Source: an uncultured Paracoccaceae bacterium (GTDB lineage Bacteria; Pseudomonadota; Alphaproteobacteria; Rhodobacterales; Rhodobacteraceae). Taken from it: DNA of 57,936 nt. The stretch's first letter is position 1. Every line of letters starts with the position of its first letter. Shown one piece after another: positions 19,231 through 37,811 of the stretch. Location of the stretch: positions 1 through 57,936 of the forward strand of contig CANLEQ010000023.1 in assembly GCA_947489705.1 (NCBI GenBank). The letters are read 5' to 3'. A program made the translations under genes and the position numbers. A model generated the notes under the pieces. It had not been told where the DNA came from. It did no database searches and worked only from the letters and a program-made list of their open reading frames with translations.

Positions 19231-19253
19231 AATTCTAGTCCCAGGGCGCGAAA

Positions 19254-19282: not shown

Positions 19283-19333
19283 TTTTAACAATTATTCAAA
19301 GACAATCGCGTTCGGTCTGCATAGTTGGTTCTC

Positions 19334-19549: not shown

Positions 19550-19550
19550 A

Positions 19551-21247: not shown

Positions 21248-21924
21248 TCCGCGGCTGCGTTCTTGGTCTCCTCGTTCTTGCAGTTCCCGCAACCAGCTAT
21301 GCCACCGTCTATGAATACTCTCGCGATGGCCGCGTCGTCGTACGAGATTCATCAGCGCCGAAAGCTGAACCGCAGCCGCAGACCTCCCGGCCGGCTCGTG
21401 TATCCTCCTCCCGCGCGACTTACCTTAGAATGGCCGAGCAAGTGGCGCTCCGGCACGCGGGTGGTGCAGGTCCGCGCCGGGCGGGCCTTGATGCTGCATC
21501 TTTCATGCGCGTCTTCGTTGAGTTGATCCGGGCGGAAAGCGGCTTTAATCCCCGCGCCCTGTCGCCGAAGGGCGCGCAGGGTCTCGGTCAGCTCATGCCG
21601 GCGACCGCGCGCGATCTCGGTGTCCGCGATCCTTGGGACCCGGCGCAGAACCTTGACGGTGCCGCCCGCTATTTCTCGGCACAACTCGAACGCTTTGGCA
21701 ACGTCCGCCATGCGCTTGCGGCCTACAATGCGGGTCCGCATCGCGTGGTGCAGTATGGCGGAATACCTCCCTTTCGGGAGACCCGTGCTTACGTCGCCAA
21801 AATCACTGCCGCGGTTGGTCAAGTCCCAACGGCAGAACCCGGACCTGCGCTGCAACGCAGGTCCACCACCCCCACCATCTCTACCAAAAATCCCGCAAAG
21901 GACCTCTCTGTATGGCAGTATTGA
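21244..21924 (+). CDS. virB1: VirB1-like lytic transglycosylase
   Basis: A 226-residue periplasmic enzyme that opens peptidoglycan for the secretion channel. It has an N-terminal signal peptide (GTG start; IRGCVLGLLVLAVPATSYA). A variable linker follows, then an SLT domain with the catalytic Glu in LIRAESGFNPRALSPKGAQG, the QGLGQLMPATARDLGV block and AYNAGPHRV. The GTG start overlaps the stop of the upstream membrane-protein gene and gives a good signal peptide. It overlaps virB2 by 13 bases. Confidence 0.93.
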   Translation: MIRGCVLGLLVLAVPATSYATVYEYSRDGRVVVRDSSAPKAEPQPQTSRPARVSSSRATYLRMAEQVALRHAGGAGPRRAGLDAASFMRVFVELIRAESGFNPRALSPKGAQGLGQLMPATARDLGVRDPWDPAQNLDGAARYFSAQLERFGNVRHALAAYNAGPHRVVQYGGIPPFRETRAYVAKITAAVGQVPTAEPGPALQRRSTTPTISTKNPAKDLSVWQY

Positions 21925-22196
21925 CCCCCTCGCACCGTCGCATCGCGACGGTTGCGCTCGCCCTGAGTTTTGCCGCCGGCCCGGCGCTGGCGCAAGACCT
22001 GTCCCCCCTCAACAACTTCTTCACGACCATCGGCACCGCTCTGACGGGCACGACGGGTCGAGCACTTGGCCTTGTCGCCGTCGCTGCGGTCGGCATCGCG
22101 TTCCTGATGGGCCGCATGAACTGGATGTTCGCCGGTTCTGTCCTGATCGGTCTCGTGATCCTGTTCGGTGCGGGCACGATCCTCGCGGGTCTCTGA
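21912..22196 (+). CDS. virB2: VirB2-like pilin precursor
   Basis: A 94-residue major pilin candidate with a long signal peptide cleaved after GPALAQ (about residue 28). Two membrane helices follow (ALGLVAVAAVGIAFLMG and MFAGSVLIGLVILFGAGTI) separated by RMNW, the classical VirB2 arrangement. It forms the extracellular pilus of the transfer system. Position between virB1 and virB3 confirms the call. Confidence 0.9.
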   Translation: MAVLTPSHRRIATVALALSFAAGPALAQDLSPLNNFFTTIGTALTGTTGRALGLVAVAAVGIAFLMGRMNWMFAGSVLIGLVILFGAGTILAGL

Positions 22197-22199
22197 TCC

Positions 22200-22475
22200 A
22201 TGCCTAACCCGTGCTTCCTGGCGCTTACGCGACCGGTCTCGATTGCGGGATTGCCGATGTCCTACGTCGTGATGCTCTTCATCGTGACGGTCGGTGGTTT
22301 CGTCGCTTTCCTGTCGGTCTTGTGGCTGCTGGGAAGCGCGGCCATCGGCTACGCCGCGCTCCGCGCGCTGGCCAATTATGACCCCCGCTATCTCGATGTC
22401 ATTTTCGTAAGCCTGTCTCGGACGCCGCCCACCCCGAGCTGGTTCAAGGGTAAGGGGATGATTTACCGTGCTTGA
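22200..22475 (+). CDS. virB3: VirB3-like inner-membrane protein
   Basis: 91 residues with the VirB3 layout: a short N-terminus (FLALTRPVSIAGLPMSYVV), one or two membrane segments (MLFIVTVGGFVAFLSVLWLL) and a short C-terminal part (ALANYDPRYLDVIFVSLSRT). It works with VirB4 in pilus assembly. It overlaps the virB4 start by eight bases. Confidence 0.88.
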   Translation: MPNPCFLALTRPVSIAGLPMSYVVMLFIVTVGGFVAFLSVLWLLGSAAIGYAALRALANYDPRYLDVIFVSLSRTPPTPSWFKGKGMIYRA

Positions 22476-24828
22476 TCTGAAGCAGGGCCTTGGACGCCGC
22501 GCCGTCGATCCACCGGGCCTTACACGCGAACATATGCTGGCGTCCTACCTTCCCTATGTGACTGGTGTGGGCGAGGACGTCATCATGCTTCGCGACGGCG
22601 ATGTGATGGCATCGTTCCTCGTCGCAGGCATCGAGGCGGACACCGCCGACGCGACATTCGTCGATGATGTTGCACGAGCTTTCGCCGCGACGGTCGCGCA
22701 AGCGCGGCCTGACATCGCATTCTACGTCCATCGCGTTTCCCATGAGACCGCGCCGATCCTGCCGCCCGTCGAGGGTGACGGACTTGCCGCGCGGATCGAC
22801 GCGCAATGGCAGGGCTTGATTTCCGGAGGTGGCTTGCGCGAGCGGGTCACGATGGTCTCCGTCGTCGTTCGCCCCCGCAAGCTGGCGGGATTGATGGCTC
22901 GTATCACGGGTGGTTCCAAGCGCGACTTGCGCGCCGAACGTGCCCGGCGCATCGCCGTGTTGAACGAAGTCACCACCAACCTGATGCAAGCGGTTGGTGT
23001 GACCCGGCCCGAACGACTAACCCTCGCGGACGGACGCTGGCTCGGACTGCTCCGCACGGCCGTGACCGGCAAGTACGCCCCGCTGACACCGGGTGCTGCG
23101 TTCACGCCGATCTCCAACCTTCTGGTGGACAGCCGCGTCGATTTCCGGGGCGACAGCTTCGTCGTCCTGGGCACGGATGAGGACGATCTGCGCTTCGGGG
23201 CGATGTTCACCTTCAAGAAGTACCCGACCGAGACCGCGCCGGGATTTCTCGACCGGCTCGACTTGCCCGGTGATACGGTCGTGACGCACTCTTTCACGCC
23301 GATCGACCTCGTGCCGGCACTCGGTCGTGTGCAGCGCACGGTCCGGCAGATGAGCGCAGCCGACGACGCGGCCCGCTCAGCGCAGGCGCAGCTTACCGAT
23401 GCGGCCGACGATCTTGCTTCGGGGCGGATCAGTTTCGGTCAGCACCAAGTCTCGATCATGGCCGTTGCGCGAAGCCAGGAGGAACTGAACGATCTCTCCT
23501 CCGAGATCCGGACGCAATCGCAGCGCGCGCTCGCCGTGGCCGTGCGAGAGGACATCGGGGCGCGAACGGCGTATTTCGCGCAGCACCCGGGCAACTTTTC
23601 CTTCCGGTCGCGCGACGCGATGATCTCATCGGCCTGCTTCGCGGATTTTGCGGCGCTGCACACGACCGGGCGCGGTCTCAAGCCGGGAAGCGAGCCCTGG
23701 GGGGCTCCCATCACGATCCTGCCCACGCTGGGCGGTGAGCCCTACCGCTTCAATTTCCACCAGCCGGGAGAGCCGGGCGACCGGACGGTGGGTCATACGC
23801 TCGTCATCGGCCGCACTGGATCGGGCAAGACGCTCGGCACCGCGTTCCTGCTGGCACAGGCGCAGCGCGTCGGCCCCCGCATCATCGCCTTCGACAAGGA
23901 TCGCGGCCTTGAAAGCGCAATCCGCGGGCTCGGGGGCAGCTACTCGCCCGTTCAGATGGGTGTGCCGACCGGGTTCAATCCGTTTCGCTCGGAATCCGAC
24001 CTGCGGGGCGTAGGCTGGCTGACGGACTGGCTCGGGGCGCTACTGACCAACGACTCCGTGCCGCTCAGCCCGACGCAATCCGAGGCGCTGTCGCAGGCGG
24101 CGCGGTCGAACGCCGAGTCCGATCCTTTCCTGCAAACGCTGGCCTCATTTCGCAGCCAGCTCGTCGCGGTCGATGACGGTGGCGATCTGCATACCCGGTT
24201 GGGCCAGTGGGACGACGGCAAGTATCACTGGCTGTTCTCCGGCACCGGCACCGATCCACTGACCTTCGATAACCGGATCACCGCGTTCGACCTGACCGAG
24301 ATCTTCGACAGCCCGGCGGTTCGCACGGCGTGGCTGTCCTATGTGTTCCGCCGCATCGAGCGCACGGTCGAGGACGGTCGGCCCACGATCATCGTTCTCG
24401 ACGAAGCCTGGAAGATGCTTGACGATGCGTATTTCCAGTCCCGTCTGAAGGACTGGATGCTGACGATGCGGAAGAAGAACGTCGTCGTCGTGATGCTCAC
24501 GCAGCGCGTCAGCCATATCGCGGAGAGCGCCGCAGGCGGCTCGATCTTCGAAAGCTGTGTCACGCAAATCCTGTTCCCGAGCTCGAAGAATACGGGGCGT
24601 GAACTGGCCCCCCTGAACCTTACCGATCGGGAAGAGGAGTTCCTCTGCACGTCGGCGTCGGGGGCGCACACGGCGCTGGTTCGGGCAAACGATGCCAGCA
24701 CCATCGTTGATCTCGACCTGTCGGTCCTTGGACCGATGCTCGGCACGCTCGGCGCGGGCCGCACGTCCAATGAGGCGGACGAGACCGACGAGGAACCCAA
24801 AATCATCCAATACGAGGAGGCCGTCTGA
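22468..24828 (+). CDS. virB4: VirB4 ATPase of the type IV secretion system
   Basis: A 786-residue ATPase, the usual VirB4 size, with the N-terminal CagE/TrbE domain and a RecA-like C-terminal domain. Walker A is VIGRTGSGKT (about residues 447-456) and Walker B TIIVLDEAWKML (about 639-650); WMLTMRKKNVVVVMLTQRVS follows. It powers pilus biogenesis and substrate transport at the inner membrane. The GTG start at 22468 lies inside the end of virB3 and follows a G-rich ribosome binding site. The stop overlaps the next ATG. Confidence 0.95.
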   Translation: MLDLKQGLGRRAVDPPGLTREHMLASYLPYVTGVGEDVIMLRDGDVMASFLVAGIEADTADATFVDDVARAFAATVAQARPDIAFYVHRVSHETAPILPPVEGDGLAARIDAQWQGLISGGGLRERVTMVSVVVRPRKLAGLMARITGGSKRDLRAERARRIAVLNEVTTNLMQAVGVTRPERLTLADGRWLGLLRTAVTGKYAPLTPGAAFTPISNLLVDSRVDFRGDSFVVLGTDEDDLRFGAMFTFKKYPTETAPGFLDRLDLPGDTVVTHSFTPIDLVPALGRVQRTVRQMSAADDAARSAQAQLTDAADDLASGRISFGQHQVSIMAVARSQEELNDLSSEIRTQSQRALAVAVREDIGARTAYFAQHPGNFSFRSRDAMISSACFADFAALHTTGRGLKPGSEPWGAPITILPTLGGEPYRFNFHQPGEPGDRTVGHTLVIGRTGSGKTLGTAFLLAQAQRVGPRIIAFDKDRGLESAIRGLGGSYSPVQMGVPTGFNPFRSESDLRGVGWLTDWLGALLTNDSVPLSPTQSEALSQAARSNAESDPFLQTLASFRSQLVAVDDGGDLHTRLGQWDDGKYHWLFSGTGTDPLTFDNRITAFDLTEIFDSPAVRTAWLSYVFRRIERTVEDGRPTIIVLDEAWKMLDDAYFQSRLKDWMLTMRKKNVVVVMLTQRVSHIAESAAGGSIFESCVTQILFPSSKNTGRELAPLNLTDREEEFLCTSASGAHTALVRANDASTIVDLDLSVLGPMLGTLGAGRTSNEADETDEEPKIIQYEEAV

Positions 24829-24959
24829 TGGTCCGGATCATCGCCGCTCTGGCGCTCGCCGCCCTTCTGGGGGGCTGCGCGACCTACACCGAGCGCATGT
24901 CGCCCTGCGTCTGCGGGGAATGGGAAGCAATCAACGCGGAAGGAGTGGCTACGGTATGA
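24828..24959 (+). CDS. VirB7-like small lipoprotein
   Basis: A 43-residue gene that begins within the virB4 stop (TGATG) and ends within the virB5 start. The protein MVRIIAALALAALLGGCATY has a lipoprotein signal with lipobox LGGC (Cys17) and a short mature part with two more cysteines (MSPCVCGEW). In VirB systems a tiny lipoprotein (VirB7) anchors VirB9 in the outer membrane, sometimes by a disulfide. The order here (between B4 and B5) differs from Agrobacterium, where virB7 follows virB6. Overlap at both ends with bona fide vir genes makes this a real gene. Confidence 0.8.
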   Translation: MVRIIAALALAALLGGCATYTERMSPCVCGEWEAINAEGVATV

Positions 24960-25651
24960 AGAAGATCCTTCGAACCACCGCGATCGCGGCGTCGATCACT
25001 TTGTCGGCCGCGGGTGCGGGTTACGCCCAGGGCGTGCCGACCTTCGACGCCGCCTCTGTCGCTCAGGCTCTCGCGCAACTCGAACAGATGCGGCAGGACT
25101 ACGCCAACCAACTTCAGCAGCTTCAGAGCATGACTGGCGACAAGGCGATCGCCGGTATCCTGAACTCTGCCCCGGAGATCGCGGCGCGGGAATCGGCTGA
25201 CAGCCTCTCCTCGATCATGTCGGGCGCGATGACGGGTTCGGCCATTCCGGGCAACTCGTCGGCACTGACCTCGCGGATCAACGACCTGAAAGCGACGTTC
25301 GCCCTGCCGGACATCAACGCCTTCCTGACATCGGACAAACCGCAGGACCGGGCGCTCGCGACGCAGGCCGGGGCTGGTCTGGCGGCGGTCGCGACGGCCG
25401 AGGACACCTATGCGCGCGCCAACACGTCGATGGGCCGTGTGAACCAGCTCATCGGACAGATCGACAGCAATGCCGATCTCAAGGCGTCGGTGGATTACAA
25501 CACGCGGATGCTGGGCGAGATTGCGGTGTTGCTGAACGAAAGCCTGCGGCTTCAGGCGGCGCAGACCAATGCTGCCGGGACGGACTCGCTGCAGGCGGCC
25601 CGTGACCTGACCGCCCAACGGAACTTCATGCGTGTGGGAGACGGAGAATGA
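24956..25651 (+). CDS. virB5: VirB5-like minor pilin/adhesin
   Basis: 231 residues: signal peptide MKKILRTTAIAASITLSAAG (cleaved after GYA) and a helical mature protein with a coiled-coil start (LAQLEQMRQDYANQLQQLQS). It ends in a long helix (AVLLNESLRLQAAQTNAAG), as expected for VirB5/TrbJ proteins at the pilus tip. The ATG at 24956 overlaps the lipoprotein stop and was preferred over upstream in-frame starts, because it gives a signal peptide. It overlaps the next gene by four bases. Confidence 0.87.
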   Translation: MKKILRTTAIAASITLSAAGAGYAQGVPTFDAASVAQALAQLEQMRQDYANQLQQLQSMTGDKAIAGILNSAPEIAARESADSLSSIMSGAMTGSAIPGNSSALTSRINDLKATFALPDINAFLTSDKPQDRALATQAGAGLAAVATAEDTYARANTSMGRVNQLIGQIDSNADLKASVDYNTRMLGEIAVLLNESLRLQAAQTNAAGTDSLQAARDLTAQRNFMRVGDGE

Positions 25652-26064
25652 CGATGCGATCGAACCTGGCCGCGGCGGCGGCCGCACTGATCCTGGCGAC
25701 GCCAATGGCCTACGCCGCCGGCGGCTCGTGGATATGCGAGAACCAGATGGACATGGACTATGAAGAAACCCGTGCGATCTCCGGCTCGAACAACGGCCTC
25801 TATCAGATCCTGGTGAAGACGCGGGAGAACTGGGACATCGCGCATATGCGCGAGCAATGCGAAGCCTATGCCGAAGGCCGCCCCTACGAAATCTCCTGCC
25901 TCGATGATCGGCGGGACTGGGACGAGATCGTGGCGATGGTGCCGGAGGAATACTTCGGCATGTCAAATGAAGCCTTGTACCCGCATTTTCTCGCGATGGA
26001 GAGCAATCAGGAAAAAGCCAGCGAGGTTGCGGATTACTGCCGCGACGTCGACGCGATCGAGTAA
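25648..26064 (+). CDS. Secreted hypothetical protein inside the virB operon
   Basis: A 138-residue protein with a signal peptide (MTMRSNLAAAAAALILATPM, then AYA). Its mature domain is acidic, Tyr/Met-rich and has four Cys (GGSWICENQMDMDYEETRA, MREQCEAYAEGRPYEISCLD, SEVADYCRDVDAIE). Even Cys number and export suggest disulfides. I do not recognise a family. Coupled to virB5 by ATGA overlap and followed by virB6 after 15 bases, it is an integral operon member. A periplasmic accessory or entry-exclusion role, similar to the small genes next to trbJ/virB5 in other systems, is possible but unproven. Confidence 0.75.
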   Translation: MTMRSNLAAAAAALILATPMAYAAGGSWICENQMDMDYEETRAISGSNNGLYQILVKTRENWDIAHMREQCEAYAEGRPYEISCLDDRRDWDEIVAMVPEEYFGMSNEALYPHFLAMESNQEKASEVADYCRDVDAIE

Positions 26065-26079
26065 AGAAAGGCGGGCCCG

Positions 26080-27210
26080 ATGGCGACGTATGTCGAGAAC
26101 ACTTTGACGAGGCTTGATGGCGCGATTGGTAGCTATGCCGAGAGCAGCTTCGCAGCGTTCGCCGGGCCGATCGCGACCGTGTGCCAGGCAATGGGTGTCG
26201 TTGGCTTGGCCTTCATCGCCTTCAATGCCCTCACACAATGGGCCCCGATCAGGCTCAGCGAGTACCTCAAGTGGGGCATCCGCTACGTCATCGTCACCGC
26301 CGTTGCGACAAGCTGGGCGCAATTCCAGCCGATCTACGACATCGTCACCAACGTCCCCGGTGAACTCGGCGCGAAGTTGATGGGGATCGTCAGCGCGCCG
26401 AACCTGAACACCGCCTTCGACGAGATGATCTCCACCATGTTCGACTTCTCCGACAAGCTGGCCGACGAGGCCGGTATGTTCTCGATCAGTATGGCGTCGA
26501 TCGTCGTGTGGATCATCGGCTCGTTGATGGCGGCGGCAGCGATCATTGTCATCTCGCTTGGAAAGATCGGTCTCGGCATGGCAATCGCCTTGGCCCCGAT
26601 CTTCATCCCGACGCTGATGTTCAAGGCAACGTCGAACCTGTTCGAGAGCTGGGTGCGCTTCACCCTCGGATTCGCCCTGATCCCGCTGGTCATGGCCGGT
26701 GTCGTCGGGGCGATCGTCGGGATCGGTCAAAGCCTGATCTCCACGGCATCCGGTGCGGCCGATCTCGAAGATGCAGCCGGTTTCCTGATCGTGGGTGTCG
26801 GCGCGATCTTCATGACGGCGATGGTGCCCACGCTGGTCAACGGCCTCTCCGGCACGATCACGGCGACGGCGAACGGTGTCGCGATGGCACTCGGCGGCGC
26901 GGGAATGGCAGTCGGTGGAGCCGCGGCCGGCATCGCAGGCACTCGAGCCGCAAAGCAAGCCGCGTCTCCCGTTATCAGCGGCCAGATCGAGGGGCACCGG
27001 GCGGGACGTGCCGCCTCCGCCGCCGGCGGAAGCTATTGGGAAGGTCGGCAGATCGAGATGCAGCGCCAGAAGGAGCATCGTCTCAAATACGCCGATGGTG
27101 CCAGCCGTCAGGCCGCCTTCCGTGGTGAGCAGGCCAGCAGGGTCGACCGTTTCAAGGCCGCGAATGCCGGGCAGCGGTTCGAGAACCGCAGACAAAAAAG
27201 AGAAGACTGA
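26080..27210 (+). CDS. virB6: VirB6/TrbL-like polytopic membrane protein
   Basis: 376 residues with a periplasmic N-terminal part and about six membrane segments (for example VCQAMGVVGLAFIAFNAL, SMASIVVWIIGSLMAAAAI, GLGMAIALAPIFIPTLMF, GFALIPLVMAGVVGAIVG). It has the VirB6 signature near ALAPIFIPTLMFKAT and a long basic cytoplasmic tail (REGQ/RQ-rich, residues ~300-376). It forms part of the inner-membrane channel. Start at 26080 after AAAGGCGGG. Confidence 0.9.
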   Translation: MATYVENTLTRLDGAIGSYAESSFAAFAGPIATVCQAMGVVGLAFIAFNALTQWAPIRLSEYLKWGIRYVIVTAVATSWAQFQPIYDIVTNVPGELGAKLMGIVSAPNLNTAFDEMISTMFDFSDKLADEAGMFSISMASIVVWIIGSLMAAAAIIVISLGKIGLGMAIALAPIFIPTLMFKATSNLFESWVRFTLGFALIPLVMAGVVGAIVGIGQSLISTASGAADLEDAAGFLIVGVGAIFMTAMVPTLVNGLSGTITATANGVAMALGGAGMAVGGAAAGIAGTRAAKQAASPVISGQIEGHRAGRAASAAGGSYWEGRQIEMQRQKEHRLKYADGASRQAAFRGEQASRVDRFKAANAGQRFENRRQKRED

Positions 27211-27285
27211 GCGACAGCTTCAGCAGCCAATGTTTCAAGGACAACCCGCATCCCTTCGGATGCGGTCTGAGAGGAATCTGCCCTC

Positions 27286-27960
27286 ATGGCAAAGAAGACA
27301 TCCGAACAGACATCCGAAGCCTTCGAGAACGAGGTCTTCTTCTCGATGCGCCGGCAACGCAACATGGGCTGGATCGTAGGTGGTCTCGGCATGATGATCG
27401 GTCTCGTTTCGGTCGCCACTCTGGCCTTCACGGTCCCGCTCAAGGAAATACGGCCCTACGTCGTGATGGTGGACCGCGCCACCGGCGAGTCCGAGCAGGT
27501 CGTCTCGGTCCGCCCGACCTCGCTCGAAGATCAGCGCGCGGTCCTCGAGGCGGAGCTGGTGCGCTACGTCACGAACCGCGAGACCTACGACCCGACCGAC
27601 AATCCCGAACGGATTCCCGTGGTCGATGCGATGTCACAGGGTCAGGCTCAGTCTTCCCTGCGGAGCGTGTGGAACAGCGGATCGGACCAGTACCCGCCGT
27701 CGATCTATGGCGGCGATACCGTCATCACCACGCGGGTCCGGTCGGTCTCGATCCTCGACGAGAACACCGCGCAAGTCCGCTTCGTGCGACGGCTGGAGAC
27801 AGAGGGTGCAACTCCGGTGGAGCGCGATTTTGTGGCGGTCGTCGGCTACGCTTTCGAGCCCCGCACCGAGCGCACGCTCGATCAGGTCTGGCGGAACCCG
27901 CTCGGTTTCACCGTCACCGGCTACCGCATCGACGCCGAAACCCTTGATCCGAGAGGCTGA
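27286..27960 (+). CDS. virB8: VirB8 inner-membrane assembly factor
   Basis: 224 residues: a short cytoplasmic N-terminus, one membrane helix (MGWIVGGLGMMIGLVSVATL) and the NTF2-like periplasmic domain (PYVVMVDRATGESEQVVSV, RYVTNRETYDPTDNPERI, FVAVVGYAFEPRTERTLDQV, NPLGFTVTGYRID). It nucleates assembly and contacts VirB4, VirB9 and VirB10. Start 27286 after AGAGGA; 75 bases separate it from virB6, five from virB9. Confidence 0.94.
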   Translation: MAKKTSEQTSEAFENEVFFSMRRQRNMGWIVGGLGMMIGLVSVATLAFTVPLKEIRPYVVMVDRATGESEQVVSVRPTSLEDQRAVLEAELVRYVTNRETYDPTDNPERIPVVDAMSQGQAQSSLRSVWNSGSDQYPPSIYGGDTVITTRVRSVSILDENTAQVRFVRRLETEGATPVERDFVAVVGYAFEPRTERTLDQVWRNPLGFTVTGYRIDAETLDPRG

Positions 27961-27965
27961 CCCAG

Positions 27966-28763
27966 ATGAAACACGCCATCGCCATCCTGGCGCTCGTCGC
28001 CTCGGCCGGTCTCGCCGCGGCTGAAACCAAGCCCCGCCCCTTCCCGCAAGACAGCCGTATCAGGTCGTTCACCTACGACGAGCACGAGGTCTACCGGCTC
28101 GATACCTACATGCGTTTCATCACGTCGATCGAGTTCGAGCCCGGCGAGAACATCGAGTCCGTTCAGGTGGGTGACAGCGAGAGCTGGCAGATCGTTCGTC
28201 TCGACCGGGGCGACGTGCTGTCGGTCAAGCCGTTGATCGAGGGGGCTTACACCAACATGACGGTCTACACGAACCAGCGGCCCTACACGTTCGAGCTGCG
28301 GGCACGGCAGGGCCAGGTCGGCTCGCCCGACCTGAATTATCGCGTGTCGTTCCGCTATCCCGGCGTCGAAGCACGACAGCGCAACGCCGCGATCGAGCGC
28401 GCGGAGCGCCCGAAGGACTTCAACTACTATGCCACCGGCGACGCGGCTTCGATCAAGCCGGTGCAGGTCTACGATGACGGGAAGCGGACGATTTTCGTCT
28501 TCCCCGAGAATGCGCGGCGGCCGGGCATCTTCCTTGTCGGGCCGGACGGGCGCGAGAGCATCGTCAATGTCCGCCATGCCGAGAACGCCAGTGTCGTGGA
28601 CCGCGTTTCGGATCGCTGGACGATCCGCATCGGTGACGAGGAAATCTGCGTGGCGCATGGCGATGTGATCCGCTCGGTGCCGGGCGGCCGTCGCGCCCCC
28701 CAACTCGCCCGGGGCTATGCCGCCTACGATCCTGAAATCAGCGGCAGCGTGGTGCTGAAATGA
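27966..28763 (+). CDS. virB9: VirB9 outer-membrane core protein
   Basis: 265 residues: signal peptide (MKHAIAILALVASAGLAAA) and the VirB9/TrbG beta-rich domains (VYRLDTYMRFITSIEFEPGE, SWQIVRLDRGDVLSVKPL, TNMTVYTNQRPYTFELRAR, RTIFVFPENARRPGIFLV). Together with the lipoprotein and VirB10 it forms the outer-membrane ring. It ends four bases inside virB10. Confidence 0.94.
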   Translation: MKHAIAILALVASAGLAAAETKPRPFPQDSRIRSFTYDEHEVYRLDTYMRFITSIEFEPGENIESVQVGDSESWQIVRLDRGDVLSVKPLIEGAYTNMTVYTNQRPYTFELRARQGQVGSPDLNYRVSFRYPGVEARQRNAAIERAERPKDFNYYATGDAASIKPVQVYDDGKRTIFVFPENARRPGIFLVGPDGRESIVNVRHAENASVVDRVSDRWTIRIGDEEICVAHGDVIRSVPGGRRAPQLARGYAAYDPEISGSVVLK

Positions 28764-30070
28764 GCGATCAAGGAGCAAACAAACGCGATCAGATGATCGA
28801 CGGCGGTTCGGACAGTTCTGGTCGTGGCCGGACCTTGGCTGGGGTTGCCTTGCTCGGAGCCGTGGGTATTGGGGCTTACTTCATGCTCGTACCCGTCTCG
28901 GATGACATCGGCGTACCCGACACCTCCCAGACGCAGGAGATGCAGAGGCGCGAAACGTCGACGGGCGTGGATACGACAATGCCGGCCGGCCAACCCTTGG
29001 ATCAGCCAGACACAACGCCGATACCTGCCGTAATGGCCCCTATGACGTCTCCGGTTCCTGGCAACGATGGCAGCGAGGTGGACCGCCAGCGCATTGCCGA
29101 ACTCGAAGCACAGCTCGATGCCCTTCGCGAAGCGCAAGCCGGCGGTGATCCCGAACTGGAACAGGCTTTGCAGGACATGCAGGACAAGCTCGACCGCGAG
29201 CGGGAGGAAGCCGACGCGCGCTATCAGGCACTGTTGGCCCAGCTCTCGCAGAACGCCGGAGGCGGTAATACAGGTATGACAGATGACGAACGCGCCGCCC
29301 GCGAACGTCTTGAAGAAGAGCGGCAGCGCCGGGCTGCGATCGCCGAGGCACAGATCATGTCGGACGGCATCGTTCTCGATGCGGCCGGCGCGAAGACCGG
29401 GGGAGGCAATCAGGGCGGCTCGACCACCAGTAACGGCTCCGGGCGCGAGCTGACCTCGAACGAGCAGTTCATGGCGGAGGCCAGCACGCAGAGCTACGAC
29501 ACCGTGCGCGCGACCCGTATCGCCAATCCCGGCCGGACCGTCGTGCAGGGCACGACGCTCAATGCCGTGCTGGAGACCGCGATCTCGACCGAACTGCCTG
29601 GCGTGATCCGTGCCGTCGTGACCGGCGACGTGATGAGCTACGACGGTATGAACGTGCTGCTGCCGCGGGGCACGCGCCTGATCGGGTCGTACAATTCGGA
29701 CGTCTCGGTCATCCAGGATCGGGTTCAGATTGCGTGGAACCGGGCGGTGACACCAGAGGGCATCAGCGTCGAGCTGGGCGGCTACGGGGCTGACGCGCTC
29801 GGCATGTCGGGACAAGCCGGACAGGTGGACAGTCGGTTCCGCCAGCGGTTCGGTTCGGCCGCGTTGATCTCGCTGATCGGTGCCGGTCCCGATGTCGTCA
29901 TTCGAGAGGATACCGGGGGCGATACGGCAGATGCGATGGAGGATGTCGGTGACGACATGGCCACGGCCACGCAAGGTGTCATGGGCGATTACCTGAATGC
30001 CGGGCCGGTCATCTACATCGCCCAGGGCGTCTACATGACAGTGTTCGTCAACAGGGACTTGGTGTTTTGA
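28760..30070 (+). CDS. virB10: VirB10 core-complex protein
   Basis: 436 residues: cytoplasmic N-terminus, one membrane helix (LAGVALLGAVGIGAYFMLV) and a Pro/Gln linker. A coiled-coil segment follows (DRQRIAELEAQLDALREAQA to EEADARYQALLAQLSQ), and a C-terminal beta-barrel (residues ~235-436; RTVVQGTTLNAVLETAIST, VLLPRGTRLIGSYNSDV, QVDSRFRQRFGSAALISLIG) spans to the outer membrane. It transmits ATP-driven changes to the channel. The stop overlaps the TTG start of virB11. Confidence 0.94.
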   Translation: MSDQGANKRDQMIDGGSDSSGRGRTLAGVALLGAVGIGAYFMLVPVSDDIGVPDTSQTQEMQRRETSTGVDTTMPAGQPLDQPDTTPIPAVMAPMTSPVPGNDGSEVDRQRIAELEAQLDALREAQAGGDPELEQALQDMQDKLDREREEADARYQALLAQLSQNAGGGNTGMTDDERAARERLEEERQRRAAIAEAQIMSDGIVLDAAGAKTGGGNQGGSTTSNGSGRELTSNEQFMAEASTQSYDTVRATRIANPGRTVVQGTTLNAVLETAISTELPGVIRAVVTGDVMSYDGMNVLLPRGTRLIGSYNSDVSVIQDRVQIAWNRAVTPEGISVELGGYGADALGMSGQAGQVDSRFRQRFGSAALISLIGAGPDVVIREDTGGDTADAMEDVGDDMATATQGVMGDYLNAGPVIYIAQGVYMTVFVNRDLVF

Positions 30071-31059
30071 ACCAGCGTTCGAGCCCGGCGAGCTATGCCG
30101 AGCAGGGCCTTCTTCCGCTCCGCAACCTCCTCGTCGACGAAGGCGTCAACGAGGTCGTCATCAACCCCGACCGTTCCGTCTGGGTCGAGTACGCGCAGCG
30201 CGGCCACATGGAGCGATGGGACGGGACGATCCCGCCTGAACGGTTGAACGCGCTCGGCGCGCATTTGGCCGGTGAGGCCAAGACCCAGCTTGGCCGCAAT
30301 CACCCTATCGTGTCGGGCCGTGTCCATGTCTTCGGCCAGTCCATGCGGGTGCAGGTCATCGTGCCTCCGGCGATCGAAACCGGCGTGTCGGTGTCGATCC
30401 GCAAGTACGTCTCGCGCATCCTCGAACTGCACGAAGTGGGCTTCCTCATGGGAGCCGAGGTCGATGTCGAGCGCCAGCGTCTCGACCGGCTGGAGGAATT
30501 GCGCGGGCTGGCCGAGGCCGGCGACCTGGCGAACCTCATGCACCGGGCCGTTACCGAGAAACTCAACATCCTCGTCTCCGGCGGCACGTCCTCGGGCAAG
30601 ACCACTCTTGCCCGCGCGATCATGTCGATGGCCGACCGGGGCGAGCGCATGGTGACGATCGAAGATGCCCCCGAGCTGCACTTGCCGCATCCGAATACTG
30701 TTGGTCTCGTCGCCGACCGGCGGACGGACTCGGAACGCTCCCCTGCCCGGCTTCTGGAAAGCGCACTCCGGATGCGACCCGACCGGCTGATCCTGGGTGA
30801 AATCCGCGGCGCGGAGGCGTTCAACTTCCTTGAGGCGATCAACACCGGGCATCCCGGCTCGATCAGCACCATCCATGCCGACAGCCCGCAGCTCGCGCTC
30901 GAACGCATGGCGATGATGGTGCTTCGCGCGGGGCTCGATCTCGGCCGTGATGACATTCTGGACTATGCCCGGTCGACCATCGACCTCGTGATACAGACAG
31001 GACGCCACGAGGGGCGTCGTGGCGTCCTGCAAGTTTTCATGCCGGCATTGGCAGACTAA
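30067..31059 (+). CDS. virB11: VirB11 traffic ATPase
   Basis: A 330-residue hexameric ATPase: Walker A GGTSSGKTT at residues 172-180, Asp box TIEDAPELHL, Walker B LRMRPDRLILGEIRGAEAF, and GHPGSISTIHADSP. Translation starts at TTG 30067 overlapping the virB10 stop, which is consistent with coupling. It is the last gene of the operon. Its stop codon overlaps the stop codon of the convergent virD4 (31056-31059). Confidence 0.95.
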   Translation: MNQRSSPASYAEQGLLPLRNLLVDEGVNEVVINPDRSVWVEYAQRGHMERWDGTIPPERLNALGAHLAGEAKTQLGRNHPIVSGRVHVFGQSMRVQVIVPPAIETGVSVSIRKYVSRILELHEVGFLMGAEVDVERQRLDRLEELRGLAEAGDLANLMHRAVTEKLNILVSGGTSSGKTTLARAIMSMADRGERMVTIEDAPELHLPHPNTVGLVADRRTDSERSPARLLESALRMRPDRLILGEIRGAEAFNFLEAINTGHPGSISTIHADSPQLALERMAMMVLRAGLDLGRDDILDYARSTIDLVIQTGRHEGRRGVLQVFMPALAD

Positions 31060-33206
31060 GCGTCGAACGAGTCTCCGGAATTACCTTTGTTTCGAGCGTG
31101 GCTCGCTTGGGCCGCCGCGAGATTCGTCTTCTTCAAACCCTTCTTTGCGACGGAATCCGCGTTCGCTTCTGCATCCATCTCAGATTGGGTTGGAGTGCCT
31201 TCGCCATGTTCTGACGCAGTGTCCGGTTGTTCGGTGTCGTCTTGATCGAGGTCCGAATGATACAGTTGCTGCGCGACAATGAGGGCCTCGCTCATATGTC
31301 GCCACTGATTGCGAACCAAGTAGACATGCTGCTCGTCGGCCGGTTCGGCAGCTGAGTCAGCATCGTCTTCGTCGGTCGGTGTTCCGGTGGTGTCTTGTGG
31401 CTCGGCTTCGCTATTGGCTTCGACCGGATCAGTGACGGCGGCGGGTGTCTCCTCGACAGGTCGATGGTCCGCGATTGGATTGACGGCCGCCCCGCCTTGT
31501 GTCGGTTGCGGTTCGACGGGTTCCTGAGGAATCTCCAACGGTTCGTCGGGGAGTTCTTTGGGTTCGGGATAGGGACCGGACTGACCTTCGAACAACGGCT
31601 TGAGTAGCCGGTCCTGATCGTACAGCACCTTGTTCACGAGTATCGGGTTGGAGCCTTGGACCAGGGCCACGATCAGATCGTCGCCAAGCATCCGGAGTTG
31701 CTCGGGACGGATCAATGGCGCTCCGTCTTCGCGCTCCTGATACGAGGTCGACATATCGCCGCCTTTCCATGACTTCGACCGCGACTTGCGGGTGAAATCG
31801 CCGATCGCTGAGCTGATGTAGTTTGGCGTGTCCTTGTCCGCCGGGGCCATGAAGAGCTGCATCCGGCAGTTCGCGAGGATCACCGCCGCCCCTTCCTTGC
31901 CATAGACATCGAGCGAGGAGATCGTCTGCACCACGATCATGATCCGGCCGCCGTAGCTGCGGAGCGTGGCAATCGCCGAGACCAGTACATCCATTCTTCC
32001 GAGGGCCGGGAACTCGTCGAGACAGAACAGGACGGGGTATTTCTCCCCCTTCTCCAGATCGGGTTCCGCTCGCTGCATGATGGAGATCGTCTGCTGGAAC
32101 ATCAGGCGAATGAGAGGAGCCAACGGGACGAGATCGTTTGGGGAGACGACGAGATAGATCGACGCGGGCTCGGAGCGCAGCGTTTTGATCGAGAAGTCCG
32201 AGGCCGACGTCGCCGCCCTCACGGCCGGGTCTGCCCAGAGGCTGAGGCCACCGTCGCTCAGTACCGAAAGATAGGAGCTGAGGATACGCGCCTCCATGCC
32301 CCCCATCTTGTAGAAGATCTTCTTGGCTTCAGGAGATTTCACCTCGTCGCCCAGCTTGCGGAGCGTGGCGAAGGCATCGCCGGGTTGCGAGAGTGCGTCG
32401 AAGACTGCGCCGATGGTCGGCGTCTCGCGCTGCACCGCCAGCATTGCCGTCGCCGCGAAGATTTCGCGCGCGCCTTCGAGGAAGCCCTGGCCGTTGCCAT
32501 GCGCGATGATGAACGACGCAGCGAGCCGCCGCGCCTCGGTGAACCGACGCCGCTCATGTGTCTCGGCCACATCTTGCAAGGGGTTGTAGCGGTGCGTCCG
32601 GCCATCCTCGGCATAGGGAGAGAACTTGTAGACCGCATCGCCGAACGAGACGCGACGCCGACTGGTCTTGGTGAAGAGCTCGCCCTTGAGGTCGAGCGCG
32701 AGGATCGAGCCCGGATAGGTCAGGATCGTCGGGATGACGACGCTGCGGGTCTTGCCCGATCCGGTCGGAGCCGAGGTGATGCTGTGCGGGATGTCCCGCG
32801 ACGACAGGAAATCGGCCTTCGATTTCGGTGTGCCGATTTTGCCGTAGATCGGGCCGTTCAGGTGATTGAGTGAGGTCAGAAGACGGGACCGCTTCATCTC
32901 GGATTTCGTTGCCCATCGAGCCGAGCCATGACTGGTGAGCTGGCGTTTGGTGCCCAACGCGGGGATCGCGATCGCCAGCGCCACTCCGAGACCGCCCCAG
33001 ATCATGAGTGCCGTCCTGATCGGCTCAACCGTGGTAATGTCGCCGAGTGTCGCGGGCATGAAGTCGAAGATCGTGGTGAAACCGACATTCGTGATGTCGC
33101 GCCCAGTGATCCAGGAGGCATATGCGCCGGCGGCGATTGCTCCCAGCATCAGCCCGATTACTAGGCCGCCCAGAGCCAGCGCCAGGATGGATTTTGCAGG
33201 TGACAT
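31056..33206 (-). CDS. virD4: VirD4/TraG coupling protein
   Basis: A 716-residue inner-membrane ATPase that hands relaxase-DNA to the channel. Two N-terminal membrane helices precede Walker A SAPTGSGKTRSV (about 145-156) and Walker B PVLFCLDEFPALGRMD (about 383). A long acidic Glu/Pro-rich C-terminal tail (from ~545, for example EPKELPDEPLEIPQEPVEPQ) ends near residue 716. Such tails in coupling proteins recruit substrates or partners. It is transcribed towards virB11 with relaxase and mobC upstream in the same direction. The start at 33206 gives the membrane anchor. Confidence 0.95.
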   Translation of the reverse strand: MSPAKSILALALGGLVIGLMLGAIAAGAYASWITGRDITNVGFTTIFDFMPATLGDITTVEPIRTALMIWGGLGVALAIAIPALGTKRQLTSHGSARWATKSEMKRSRLLTSLNHLNGPIYGKIGTPKSKADFLSSRDIPHSITSAPTGSGKTRSVVIPTILTYPGSILALDLKGELFTKTSRRRVSFGDAVYKFSPYAEDGRTHRYNPLQDVAETHERRRFTEARRLAASFIIAHGNGQGFLEGAREIFAATAMLAVQRETPTIGAVFDALSQPGDAFATLRKLGDEVKSPEAKKIFYKMGGMEARILSSYLSVLSDGGLSLWADPAVRAATSASDFSIKTLRSEPASIYLVVSPNDLVPLAPLIRLMFQQTISIMQRAEPDLEKGEKYPVLFCLDEFPALGRMDVLVSAIATLRSYGGRIMIVVQTISSLDVYGKEGAAVILANCRMQLFMAPADKDTPNYISSAIGDFTRKSRSKSWKGGDMSTSYQEREDGAPLIRPEQLRMLGDDLIVALVQGSNPILVNKVLYDQDRLLKPLFEGQSGPYPEPKELPDEPLEIPQEPVEPQPTQGGAAVNPIADHRPVEETPAAVTDPVEANSEAEPQDTTGTPTDEDDADSAAEPADEQHVYLVRNQWRHMSEALIVAQQLYHSDLDQDDTEQPDTASEHGEGTPTQSEMDAEANADSVAKKGLKKTNLAAAQASHARNKGNSGDSFDA

Positions 33207-35020: not shown

Positions 35021-35497
35021 TCAGTCCGCCGATGCTTGCTGGAGCCGTGCCAGGCCATCTTCGCGCCGAGCTGCGAGATCGAGGATGGTTTGCGTCTGGC
35101 TGTGGACGCGGGCCAGCTCGCGAGCCAGCTCCGCGCGCTCCTCCATGAACGCCTTGTAATCGGGATCGCGGGTCCGGTTGGCCGACTTGGCGATCTGGTT
35201 GATGTTCCGGGCTACGCCGATGAGTTGGCGTGTGATGTCCCTCAAGACCTCGATCTGCGCCGGATCGGCCTCGACGAACCCGCCGATCCGACGCACCGCA
35301 ATCCGCAAGGCGCGGCTTCTCTTGATCCCGAGCTGCGCGATCTGCGTGTCAAACTCTGCCAGTTCGGCTTCCGTTACCCGTACCGTCACCACCTTGTCGG
35401 CACGTCGGGCAGGCTTTTCGGCCGATGGGTCAACCCAATCACCGCCCTTCATCTCGCGGTTCTTCCAAGCTGGCGCTTTGGGATCGTCGTTCGTCAT
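35021..35497 (-). CDS. MobC/VirD1-like relaxosome protein (ribbon-helix-helix)
   Basis: 158 residues with an N-terminal ribbon-helix-helix (KVVTVRVTEAELAEFDTQIA, then KRSRALRIAVRRIGGFVE) and the MobC-type helical region (VLRDITRQLIGVARNINQIA, KSANRTRDPDYKAFMEERAE). These proteins bind oriT, melt it and help the relaxase to nick, as VirD1 does for VirD2. Located two bases upstream of the relaxase and 35 bases from the palindrome next to the nic-like site. Confidence 0.87.
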   Translation of the reverse strand: MTNDDPKAPAWKNREMKGGDWVDPSAEKPARRADKVVTVRVTEAELAEFDTQIAQLGIKRSRALRIAVRRIGGFVEADPAQIEVLRDITRQLIGVARNINQIAKSANRTRDPDYKAFMEERAELARELARVHSQTQTILDLAARREDGLARLQQASAD

Positions 35498-35531: not shown

Positions 35532-35563
35532 TCAAATGTACTACATTTGAATATATCCTGCCA
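35532..35563 (+). other. Candidate oriT: palindrome plus T-DNA-border-type nic site
   Basis: A 19-base palindrome (TCAAATGTA-C-TACATTTGA, 35532-35550) is followed without a gap by ATATATCCTGCCA (35551-35563). On the other strand that is TGGCAGGATATAT, the 13-base core of Agrobacterium T-DNA borders and close to MOBP nic sites (ATCCTG/C). By analogy VirD2 would cut the + strand between 35560 and 35561. The site lies next to mobC and the relaxase, where MOBP origins are usually found. The identity of the border core is directly visible; the cut position and strand are inferred. Confidence 0.85.
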
Positions 35564-35782: not shown

Positions 35783-35935
35783 GGACAAAGCTCCAATGGT
35801 CCAACGCTGTGTTGTGGAGATGATCCATTAGGACAGGGCTCCAAAGCTGCTTTGTGAGGGTCGTCCAACGGGACAAGGCTCCAACGCTGTGTTGTGAGGA
35901 TCATCCAACAATACAAAGCTCCATCACGTCGTTAG
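35783..35935 (+). repeat. 40-base tandem repeats, overdrive-like
   Basis: Three full units and one partial unit. Each starts GGACAARGCTCC (35783, 35831, 35871; degenerate at 35911) and contains CGCTGTGTTGTG or a close variant (35805, 35845 as AGCTGCTTTGTG, 35885), exactly 40 bases apart. This core resembles the CGCTGTGTATG stretch of the Ti-plasmid overdrive, the enhancer bound by VirC1. It lies about 220-340 bases from the nic-like site and just upstream of virC1-virC2. Confidence 0.75.
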
Positions 35936-36261
35936 TACAATCTGACAAAGGTCCGAAATGACAAAGCGTCAGTAGGACATAAGGACAATGCGGCAAGGCG
36001 TGTTTGTTACTGGAGGACAAAAGGACATAGCGACATTACGGCAACATGACATTGATCCAGTACGGCAATGGGGGTTTGCTACAACGGGGGAAGAATACAA
36101 TGATACAAAGAGGCGGTGGGACAAAGCTGCGTTGAGCGAAAGAAGAGCGCGAAGTCCGGGCGACAGACGAACCGAACCCGAAGAGGGGGAGGGTGCCAGA
36201 AGTCCCCCACGCGCAGGCGGCAGGGCGAAACCTGCCCGAGAGAGGCAAAGGAGTGGATCGA
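35936..36261. other. GACA-rich leader upstream of virC1
   Basis: No gene. The sequence repeats GGACA/GACAAAG/GACATA-type words at short distances (for example 35944, 35959, 35975, 35983, 36017, 36024, 36119). These could be spaced binding sites for the RHH protein VirC2, for VirC1, or a centromere. The virC1 promoter must lie here. Confidence 0.5.
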
Positions 36262-37041
36262 ATGTTGGACAGTGAACAGGATGCGGCGGCGGAACCGGCC
36301 CCCGACGAAGCCAGCGCCCCGAAGGTCATTACCTTCATGAGTATGAAAGGTGGTGCTGGAAAAACGATCAGCCTCATGGCGCTCGCATCAGGCCTCGTTG
36401 AACGGGGTTTTCGCGTCGCAACCCTCGAGGCAGATGAAGTCACGCCGATTACCAAGTGGCGGAAACATGCGTTGGGTAAGGAGACGTGGAACCCGAACGT
36501 CTTCATCCATCAGGCTCGGCACGCGGAAGACCTCCCGGTCGTCTTCCAGGCGATCGAAAAGGACAACGTCGATTACGTTCTCGTCGACACCAAGGGCGGC
36601 GGCTCTGACATCAACCAGACATTGATCCTGAACTCGCAACTCGTGATCGTGCCGTCCGGTCTCGATGGGACCGAAATGGATGCCCTCTTCGAGACCTGCA
36701 ACTATCTGGTCGAAGTCGTCGAAGACGCGGCAGAAGAGATCCCTGTCGTGATTCTCCTCAACAGGACACCCACACGCGAATCCGCTCTGCCGGTAACGCA
36801 TCGCATGAGCCTCGCGACACTCATCAAGGCGGAGTTGCCCGTATTGAGGACCCGACTGCCCGACAGACAGGTGCATGCCGACACTGCATCGTCGGGAATA
36901 CTCAAGCGATACTACGAGTATTGTCGGGTCACACCCGACCGGCGACTGGTCGCACCCGAGGTTCTCAAGGCGATCCGGGATTCGGAAGCCTTGACGGACG
37001 AGGTCCTCGCGATCCTGACGGCACCTGAGGAGACTGCGTGA
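36262..37041 (+). CDS. virC1: VirC1-like ParA-family ATPase
   Basis: A 259-residue MinD/ParA-type ATPase: deviant Walker A FMSMKGGAGKT (residues ~25-35), DYVLVDTKGGGSD and the C-terminal ParA regions. In Agrobacterium VirC1 binds overdrive, brings the relaxosome to the cell pole and raises T-strand number. The start at 36262 follows AAAGGAG with an eight-base spacer; an in-frame GTG lies three codons upstream. It overlaps virC2 by one base. Because no other ParA-like gene is present, it might also serve plasmid partition. Sequence to VirC1 versus generic ParA cannot be fully separated by eye; the adjacent VirC2-like gene decides for VirC1. Confidence 0.85.
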   Translation: MLDSEQDAAAEPAPDEASAPKVITFMSMKGGAGKTISLMALASGLVERGFRVATLEADEVTPITKWRKHALGKETWNPNVFIHQARHAEDLPVVFQAIEKDNVDYVLVDTKGGGSDINQTLILNSQLVIVPSGLDGTEMDALFETCNYLVEVVEDAAEEIPVVILLNRTPTRESALPVTHRMSLATLIKAELPVLRTRLPDRQVHADTASSGILKRYYEYCRVTPDRRLVAPEVLKAIRDSEALTDEVLAILTAPEETA

Positions 37042-37811
37042 TGGTTTTCAAGCTGAAGAGAATGCCGTCTGAAATGGACTACGATACGGTTCGGGCTCGG
37101 CAGAGAGAGCGCGAAAAGAACGGCTCGGAAGAGCTTGCCGACGATCCGACCCGCAAGCCCGAGACCTCCGAGGTTTCGGATGTATCGGAGGCTTCGAGTT
37201 CGACAGAGACGACCGGTGAAACCGTTCCCGTGACCGATATTGATCCTGCCGGGTTCGACCATCAACTCCCCGAACCCGAACCCGAACCCGAACAGCAAGA
37301 GCCTGCCTCCGGTTCGTCGGTCTCAACAGGCACAGACACCGCCCTGCACTCGGCGAGGGGTCCTGAAGAAGCTGGTGAGCAAAGACGTAAAACCTCGGAC
37401 CGATCGGCCAGGATCACTAAGCCGGTCGGTGAAGATCAATCGCAGCGCGTGACAATCAAGGGATATGCCGCACAACCGGTTTCCGGTGTTTCAGCGACAT
37501 ACGATGAGATCGCGCCGGTCTACGGAGAGCAGGCTGCCCTCAGTCACCTCATTGACGTTGCCCTGACATCCTTCGTGGAGGCATTGGAGGCCGGTCAGGT
37601 CGATCAAAACCAGGTCACGCCGATCTATTCTTCGGTTGCCAAGAAGCGGCAAGTCCACCGGACTATCCCAAAAGCCAGCTATGAGATCATCCTCGACAAA
37701 GTTGATCCAAACAGAATCCTGAAGCCCGGAACCGCTGGACGGGCGATCGTGCAAGGGGCGCTCAACTACTTCGTCATACAAGAAAAAGAACGCAGTAAAG
37801 GGCACCGATAA
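37041..37811 (+). CDS. virC2: VirC2-like RHH DNA-binding protein
   Basis: 256 residues: an acidic, low-complexity Glu/Ser/Pro-rich N-terminal half (EVSDVSEASSSTETTGET, PEPEPEPEQQEPASG), then a compact C-terminal domain from ~140. That domain (GEQAALSHLIDVALTSFVEA, KKRQVHRTIPKASYEIILDK, PGTAGRAIVQGALNYFVIQE) has the ribbon-helix-helix layout of VirC2, which binds DNA near the border together with VirC1. Start ATG at 37041; a GTG directly before it is possible. Confidence 0.8.
   Translation: MVFKLKRMPSEMDYDTVRARQREREKNGSEELADDPTRKPETSEVSDVSEASSSTETTGETVPVTDIDPAGFDHQLPEPEPEPEQQEPASGSSVSTGTDTALHSARGPEEAGEQRRKTSDRSARITKPVGEDQSQRVTIKGYAAQPVSGVSATYDEIAPVYGEQAALSHLIDVALTSFVEALEAGQVDQNQVTPIYSSVAKKRQVHRTIPKASYEIILDKVDPNRILKPGTAGRAIVQGALNYFVIQEKERSKGHR

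What the first reader, a model, noticed from the sequence alone, without database searches (positions are those of the whole stretch)
35532..35563. Exact T-DNA border core beside a palindrome at the putative oriT
ATATATCCTGCCA at 35551-35563 is the complement of TGGCAGGATATAT, the 13-base core of Agrobacterium borders. It abuts a 19-base palindrome and lies next to mobC and a VirD2-type relaxase with the HxDxxHPHxH motif. With virC1, virC2, virD4 and virB1-B11 in the same window, the whole DNA-processing and export side of the T-DNA pathway is present in a non-Agrobacterium setting. Nicking after 35560 on the + strand is inferred from border cutting.
Basis: partly seen in the sequence, partly recalled or inferred. 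Interest (0 to 1): 0.85.

Follow-up and report, generated by a model that had tools for sequence, protein, structure and literature searches.

The report
Border-like oriT on a conjugative plasmid
A plasmid from a probable relative of Jannaschia appears to start its transfer to other bacteria at a DNA site that is almost letter for letter the T-DNA border which Agrobacterium uses to send DNA into plants, but here still joined to a hairpin and a repeat array that the plant-transfer borders seem to have lost or moved.

Summary
TGGCAGGATATAT is exact on the minus strand at 35551-35563 and abuts a 19-base palindrome. The published border motif fits at 18 of 19 specified positions. The genome holds three exact copies, each beside VirD1- and VirD2-like genes, and 29 of 33 related loci, gathered without using the core, carry CAGGATATAT plus the hairpin in register. 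Hairpin arms covary (93.5% paired; 0 of 500 shuffles).

Best reading: the conjugative oriT (nic plus relaxosome hairpin) of a self-transmissible plasmid, not a T-DNA border. The relaxase clade is sister to Ti/Ri and rhizobial VirD2 (one side weakly supported). Between oriT and virC1 lies a plasmid-specific array of 8- or 9-base units (27 of 28 loci), resembling 8-base arrays beside 5 of 26 border sites examined.

Boldest reading: T-DNA borders and overdrive are pieces of this oriT module moved out of the virC-virD gap, with the hairpin's far arm lost. The nick after 35560 and all binding roles are inferred; nothing was tested at the bench.

The parts
35551..35563 (-). nic-region core TGGCAGGATATAT; CAGGATATAT is the part kept in most relatives
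35560..35561 (+). predicted nick, ATATATCCTG^CCA; the transferred strand would lead towards virC1 (inferred)
   Evidence: MOBP nick rule in PMC3772185 (passages); not tested
35532..35550 (.). 19-base palindrome / hairpin, 5' of nic on the nicked strand; apex GT-N3-AC on the minus strand
35820..36139 (.). array of about 40 degenerate 8-base units (about ..GGACA / ..TCCA) between oriT and virC1; TRF sees a 40-base period at 35800-35923
35021..35497 (-). VirD1/MobC-type relaxosome protein, 158 aa
33237..35018 (-). VirD2-type MOBP relaxase, 593 aa, motif HTDRAHPHMH
31056..33206 (-). VirD4 coupling protein
36262..37041 (+). VirC1 (ParA-like); the ORF opens at 36193, and 36262 is the first ATG (start not proven)
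37038..37811 (+). VirC2-like; a profile of 21 relatives matches solved VirC2 (2rh3) at E = 9.5e-22
20887..31059 (+). virB-type secretion genes (B1-like transglycosylase, B4, B5, B6, B8, B9, B10, B11 identified)
16778..17899 (-). RepC replication protein, so the contig is taken as a plasmid
18574..20186 (.). LuxR-type regulator (minus, 18574-19230) and LuxI-like synthase (plus, 19551-20186) next to virB

Best explanation
This is the origin of transfer of a self-transmissible RepC plasmid. The VirD2-type relaxase, helped by the VirD1/MobC protein, would cut the plus strand between 35560 and 35561 (ATATATCCTG^CCA), stay on the new 5' end and lead the strand, virC side first, through VirD4 and the VirB channel into another bacterium. 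The hairpin 5' of the nick would be the relaxosome recognition and strand-rejoining element. The 8-base array next to virC1 would load VirC1/VirC2, the ParA-like and ribbon-helix-helix pair that stimulates nicking and delivers the relaxosome to the channel. Shown by sequence: the core, the covarying hairpin, the array, the gene set and order, and conservation across the relaxase clade. Inferred: nicking, strand, which protein binds what, and transfer itself.
For: Of 33 hairpin-clade loci gathered without using the core (window and L003 not counted; near-duplicates included), 29 carry exact CAGGATATAT and N6-GT-N3-AC in the same register; 3 Roseibium loci have CAGGATATTG with spacing shorter by one, and 1 Roseibium locus has a degenerate core with the same hairpin. 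Hairpin covariation on 25 distinct rows: 93.5% of cells paired against 75.7% shuffled (0 of 500), 6 of 8 pairs changed on both sides (4 of 500), slid controls 35-55%. Of seven plasmid records taken for their relaxase or VirD1 genes, six have exactly one CAGGATATATN6GT; the seventh, Paracoccus, lies outside the clade and has none. In the five annotated relatives L004-L007 and L015 an ATPase/VirC1 gene and its partner stand divergent from virD1-relaxase-virD4. A nick hexamer ATCCTG with an adjacent inverted repeat is the described MOBP oriT anatomy (PMC3772185, passages). Array.
Against: No nick, binding or transfer was measured. The number of further pair types in the hairpin is not unusual (65 of 500 shuffles reach it). 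The VirC2-array link rests on one pair of plasmids; in more distant relatives VirC1 diverges too (33-61% identity). One locus of 28 (L025) shows no array. The contig ends do not overlap, so completeness is unproven. VirB2, B3 and B7 were not looked for.
Confidence: 0.87

Rival explanations
1. A working T-DNA-like border: the site marks one end of a segment exported to a eukaryotic host, as in Agrobacterium.
For: 18 of 19 specified positions of the border motif; Ti-type virC/virD/virB set.
Against: Single copy in the window and single in each related plasmid with a hit; full hairpin present; relaxase outside the Ti clade. The VirE2 search of the genome found nothing but is inconclusive, since its controls did not ring.
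Confidence: 0.04
2. The resemblance to the border is only the general MOBP nick consensus (YATCCTGY), met by chance in its longer form.
For: RP4 TraI, Ti VirD2 and H. pylori tfs4 VirD2 all need ATCCTG (PMC3772185, passages); a deeper Rhodobacteraceae clade has TGGCAGGATATG, so the last bases do vary.
Against: The full CAGGATATAT is kept in 29 of 33 loci of the clade. The GT at +7,+8 is shared with 24 of 24 exact border 13-mers in 10 rhizobial/Ti/Ri records. The two relaxase groups are sisters.
Confidence: 0.06
3. The palindrome is an operator for autoregulation of virD1 or virC1 that happens to lie by the core, not part of oriT.
For: It lies just upstream of virD1, and the VirD1/MobC protein hits NikA-like, a ribbon-helix-helix family (recalled). 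Both roles could coexist.
Against: Fixed spacing to the core, and a GT at the apex position shared with border sites that are far from virD1 (pTi-SAKURA sites 18 and 44 kb away).
Confidence: 0.12
4. The 8/9-base array is a plasmid centromere (partition site) or a coding low-complexity stretch rather than a relaxosome part.
For: ParA-like plus ribbon-helix-helix proteins with short iterons is the build of type Ib partition (recalled). In the 9-base arrays of L002 and L003 an open frame runs through.
Against: Most best lags are multiples of 8 (20 of 28), which a reading frame does not follow; the array lies by oriT in 27 of 28 loci; Ti VirC1/VirC2 act in transfer, not in cell division (PMC8406263, passages).
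Confidence: 0.25

Closest known systems
T-DNA borders of Ti/Ri plasmids (for example pTi-SAKURA L110, L116)
   Same: CAGGATATAT core, GT at +7,+8, VirD1/VirD2/VirC1/VirC2 set; 8-base array right of one or two sites in pRi1724, pTiS4 and pTi6.2
   Different: Ti sites lie away from virD1 in two or more copies and without a full hairpin; overdrive lies right of the right border (PMC4285021, passages), whereas here the array is on the other side of the core, in the leading region; the virC1-virD1 gaps of nine Ti/rhizobial plasmids hold neither core nor array
MOBP oriTs of RP4 and H. pylori tfs4
   Same: ATCCTG nick hexamer; an inverted repeat beside it (PMC3772185, passages)
   Different: longer core, GT-N3-AC apex, VirD1-type helper, virC1/virC2 next to it, and an array
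VirD2 plasmids of Roseobacter and Phaeobacter (for example pTB1, pP92_e)
   Same: same module, same hairpin type
   Different: other hairpin arms and array units; an outer inverted repeat that the window lacks

Membership tests
MOBP / VirD2-type relaxase | relaxase domain with the three-histidine motif | tested here: met
   PF03432 at 53.8 bits (cut-off 24.6); NCBIfam VirD2 152 bits, below its equivalog cut-off 623; HTDRAHPHMH
Ti VirD2 | relaxase within the Ti VirD2 clade | tested here: not met
   sister clade; the 47-row parent has 99/95, the hairpin clade 99/97, the Ti/rhizobial side only 91/55; midpoint root; long branches flagged
MOBP oriT | ATCCTG nick hexamer with adjacent inverted repeat near the relaxase gene | tested here: met
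   anatomy from PMC3772185 (passages)
MOBP oriT | site- and strand-specific nick; mobilisation in cis | not testable with these tools
   needs bench work
T-DNA border | motif YGRCAGGATATATNNNNNKGTMAWN | tested here: not met
   18 of 19 positions; G in place of A at +10
T-DNA border | two or more copies delimiting a segment | tested here: not met
   one copy in the window; the other two exact copies in the genome lie on other contigs at the same oriT-like place; the contig may be incomplete
VirD1 | VirD1 family profile | tested here: met
   PF07328 56 bits (cut-off 28.2); NCBIfam 130 bits, below its equivalog cut-off 173; MobC and NikA-like also hit
VirC1 | VirC1 family profile | tested here: met
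   PF07015 163 bits (cut-off 24); NCBIfam 163 bits, below its equivalog cut-off 313
VirC2 | VirC2 C-terminal domain | tested here: met
   single protein below both cut-offs (PF07181 21.7 of 25; NCBIfam 37.9 of 255), but the 21-row profile hits solved VirC2 2rh3 at 9.5e-22
overdrive / T-DNA transfer stimulator | 8-base repeats near the nick site bound by VirC1 | tested here: inconclusive
   8-base period met; it lies on the other side of the core; binding not testable

The most novel reading that the evidence does not exclude
The T-DNA border and its overdrive are a dismantled oriT. The ancestral module, kept by the window's plasmid family, sits between virC1 and virD1: core, covarying hairpin closed by GT-N3-AC, and a VirC1/VirC2-read array of 8-base units. 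In the sister Rhizobiaceae lineage the core with the near half of the hairpin (the border's GTMAAC is the former apex) was copied out of the virC-virD gap, lost the far arm and in some cases kept an 8-base array beside it, so that it could nick without rejoining and delimit a segment. p42a, with five contiguous pairs still in register beside an exact core, and the hairpin in the deeper TGGCAGGATATG clade fit such a path.
Probability: 0.45. Interest if true: 0.82.

Novelty: new variant of a known kind. Interest (0 to 1): 0.64.

Why it matters
That borders are the functional equivalents of conjugative oriTs is established (PMC12857230, passages). What is added is a family of conjugative plasmids in which the border's working set (core, apex, array, VirD1/VirD2/VirC1/VirC2 and the divergent gene order) still stands together as an ordinary oriT, in the sister lineage of Ti VirD2. 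It gives a concrete before-state for the origin of T-DNA transfer, predicts what the border's GTMAAC and the overdrive are relics of, and gives testable roles for hairpin arms (relaxase/VirD1) and array units (VirC2). It also supplies an oriT signature for a plasmid group that typing often misses: PLSDB's MOB-suite line says non-mobilizable for five of the six clade records fetched from that collection.

Tried and rejected
Outer inverted repeat around core plus hairpin: own left and right flanks pair better than swapped ones (0 of 5000 permutations as high; 16 of 27 loci score 14 or more, but so do 163 of 702 swapped pairs), and the window has none (score 6), so it is not part of the window's feature.

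GCAGGATATAT as a genome-wide marker: too common, present in 218 of 394 family genomes; dropped. Loci L079-L108 from that call were not read.

IMG/VR scan for relatives: none. Wider searches gave few more members: 2 of 390 order genomes at E 1e-60 and 4 of 385 class genomes at E 1e-40, own genome included in both. In the family search 87 of 394 genomes matched at E 1e-20, at most two candidates per genome were scored and 30 loci were handed out; the other matches were not read.

VirE2 in the own genome: no match, but the control genomes did not ring, so inconclusive. Relaxase against PDB sequences: no hit.

First idea that borders on p42a were unreported, resting on PMC4788154 (passages): rejected, since PMC8554961 (passages) reports five border-like sequences there.

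Rows dropped: 14 of 85 relaxase rows left out of the tree as duplicates or short rows (L014, L028, L033, L036, L040, L044, L045, L046, L051, L053, L054, L057, L059, L076). From the count of 33: L033 (same record as L005), L046 (same site as L019), L036 and L044 (contig cut at the gene), L014 (insertion sequence upstream; its site was found elsewhere on the plasmid). The 33 still hold near-copies: L027 with L028, and L005 with L029, L032 and L041. L015 came by DNA similarity of relaxase and virD4, the rest by protein. The array test took 28 loci; L028, L029, L032, L033, L041 (near-copies) and L047, L075, L077 were left out. Weaker Rhodobacteraceae relaxases L062-L064 and L066-L073 showed neither CAGGATATAT nor TGGCAGGATATG nearby; two of these 11 (L063, L072) do have CAGGATAT some 1.3 and 0.6 kb upstream, not assessed. 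L042, L043 and L048 also lack the core.

Full report
What is there. The minus strand at 35563-35551 reads TGGCAGGATATAT, followed at once by TCAAATGTAGTACATTTGA (35550-35532), a palindrome, and then by the VirD1/MobC gene (35497-35021) and the relaxase gene. On the plus strand this is hairpin, ATATATCCTG, predicted nick, CCA. The contig (57,936 bases, one of 156 in the assembly) carries RepC, LuxR/LuxI-like regulators, virB1-like, B4, B5, B6, B8-B11, VirD4, VirC1 and VirC2. The nearest relaxase outside the genome is 91% identical, in an uncultured Jannaschia, so the host is probably a Rhodobacterales; the genome itself is unnamed.

Is it more than chance? Yes. The genome has three exact 13-mers and none of the reversed control. 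The other two (L002, L003) have the same layout: hairpin, VirD1-like gene of 158 aa, VirD2-like relaxase and a divergent ParA/VirC1-like gene. Their hairpins differ: CCAAAAGTAGAACTTTTGG and AGAAGTGTAACACACTTCT.

Conservation tested without using the core. Relatives were gathered by relaxase or VirD1 protein or, for L014 and L015, by DNA similarity over relaxase and virD4. In the window's relaxase clade 33 loci could be assessed (window and L003 left out; other exclusions and near-copies are listed under Tried and rejected): 29 have exact CAGGATATAT with N6-GT-N3-AC, 3 Roseibium loci have CAGGATATTG with the hairpin one base nearer, and 1 Roseibium locus has a decayed core with the same hairpin. 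A second, deeper Rhodobacteraceae relaxase group (16 of 16 loci: L049-L061, L065, L074, L078) has TGGCAGGATATG and a shorter or less perfect hairpin with GT..AC at its apex (hairpin read by eye). Weaker relaxases L062-L064 and L066-L073 showed neither form, though two of these 11 hold a shorter CAGGATAT further upstream that I did not assess.

The hairpin is under structural constraint. On 26 sequences (25 distinct) the 8 pairs form in 93.5% of cells; shuffles average 75.7% and none of 500 reaches it; 6 of 8 pairs show changes on both sides (4 of 500 shuffles reach 6); the two apex pairs never vary; sliding the arms drops pairing to 35-55%. The count of further pair types (14) is not unusual, 65 of 500. 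The window hairpin folds as single-stranded DNA at -5.9 kcal/mol, z -6.2.

Relation to T-DNA borders. The published search motif for borders, YGRCAGGATATATNNNNNKGTMAWN (PMC8756689, passage), fits the window at 18 of 19 specified positions. Among 27 sites with the exact 10-mer the right-hand part (6 positions) fits at 5 in 16, at 4 in 9, at 3 in 2; a random site would fit at 5 or more with probability 0.025 and at 4 or more with 0.14. So the border's KGTMA lines up with the hairpin's loop-closing GT. I took 12 Ti, Ri and rhizobial vir-plasmid records out of some 190 with a VirD1 match: TGRCAGGATAT occurs in 12 of 12, with 0 in the reversed control. The full TGRCAGGATATAT occurs 24 times in 10 of the 12, all 24 with GT at +7,+8; of the 9 shorter matches 1 has it. 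Of the 24, one (p42a L120, CCTGATGTAAAACATCGTG) still pairs at 6 of 8 positions at the oriT spacing, five of them contiguous; four more (L119, L131, L138, L146) pair at 5 of 8 with the loop one base shorter; the rest have lost the far arm. The virC1-virD1 gaps of nine such plasmids (233-270 bases) have no core within one mismatch and no period above z 3.4. Not every one keeps the virC/virD neighbourhood: p42a has virC and virD apart, and no virC gene is listed by virD1 of pAt1D132b.

Tree. With 71 of 85 rows, the hairpin-oriT loci and Roseibium form one clade (33 rows, 99/97), sister, within a 47-row clade (99/95), to a 14-row clade of Ti/Ri and rhizobial VirD2 (91/55, weak). The root is at the midpoint only, and the program warns of long branches, among them pAvF25e and pRsp8C3a on the rhizobial side. 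That the deeper group also has a hairpin suggests, by parsimony, that borders lost it; this is inference.

The array. Between oriT and virC1, 27 of 28 loci show a strong period (z about 5 or more; L025 fails), while 5 of 273 control segments reach 5. Best lags are multiples of 8 in 20, of 9 in 6, 17 in one and 7 in L025. The unit is plasmid-specific. Of 26 border-like sites, 5, on four plasmids (pRi1724, pTiS4, pTi6.2 twice, M. mediterraneum R31), have an 8-base array just to their right; pTi-SAKURA's two and the others show none by this test. VirC1 is reported to bind overdrive (PMC4285021, passages), and VirC2 has a C-terminal ribbon-helix-helix fold (title of Lu et al. 2009 seen in a reference list). 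In the window's nearest relative, L016, DNA similarity runs through relaxase, VirD1, hairpin and core to 35566, is absent to 36241 (the array) and resumes at virC1. VirC1, VirD1, relaxase, VirD4 and VirB11 are 91-95% identical but VirC2 62% (68% in its C-terminal 117 residues). I take this as a hint that VirC2 reads the array; it is one pair, and in more distant relatives VirC1 diverges too.

What is in print. Nine paper searches (listings, some capped) and passages of PMC3772185, PMC4788154, PMC4886583, PMC4511512, PMC8554961, PMC8406263, PMC4285021, PMC12857230 and PMC8756689 were seen. They cover the link of borders and oriT, VirD2-like relaxases in Roseobacter-group plasmids and the MOBP nick rule. 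None of these listings or passages describes an oriT sequence, this hairpin or this array in Rhodobacterales plasmids. The library lacks most subscription journals, so this is not proof of absence. The 1991 comparison of IncP nick regions with borders is recalled, not read.

Verdict. An oriT of known kind (MOBP) in a new and informative form.

Noticed in passing
L157 (S. meliloti pRRI128_4) and L158 (M. mediterraneum R31 plasmid unnamed1): Non-Ti symbiont plasmids carry exact border 13-mers (4 and 2) with a gene annotated RolB family between or beside them and virC/virD1 genes on the same plasmid. A paper search (12 of 31 papers listed) showed nothing specific on this.
   Followed up: partly
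L113, L118 (pRLa12), L132 (pRL7), L119 (pRsp8C3a): Exact border 13-mers with GT at +7 on Rhizobium plasmids; the one on pRsp8C3a is followed by telomere-like CCCTAA repeats.
   Followed up: partly
window 35567-36241 against L016: DNA similarity with the closest relative stops three bases past the core and resumes at virC1, as if the leading region had been exchanged at the nick site.
   Followed up: no
L003-L007, L015, L021, L023, L024, L026, L027, L030, L034, L035, L075, L077: A second, outer inverted repeat of variable sequence encloses core and hairpin (for example GGGGAGGGAGAGT in L077); absent in the window.
   Followed up: partly
window 36001-36008: The octamer TGTTTGTT, the recalled octopine overdrive word, occurs inside the array (read by eye); one 8-mer in 300 bases may be chance.
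   Followed up: no
window 11140-16065: A 1641-aa single-chain type ISP restriction-modification protein on the same plasmid.
   Followed up: no
L049-L061, L065, L074, L078: A second Rhodobacteraceae relaxase group shares a nearly invariant candidate oriT, TTGGCAGGATATG...TTTGTCCGAGGGGTCTG.
   Followed up: partly
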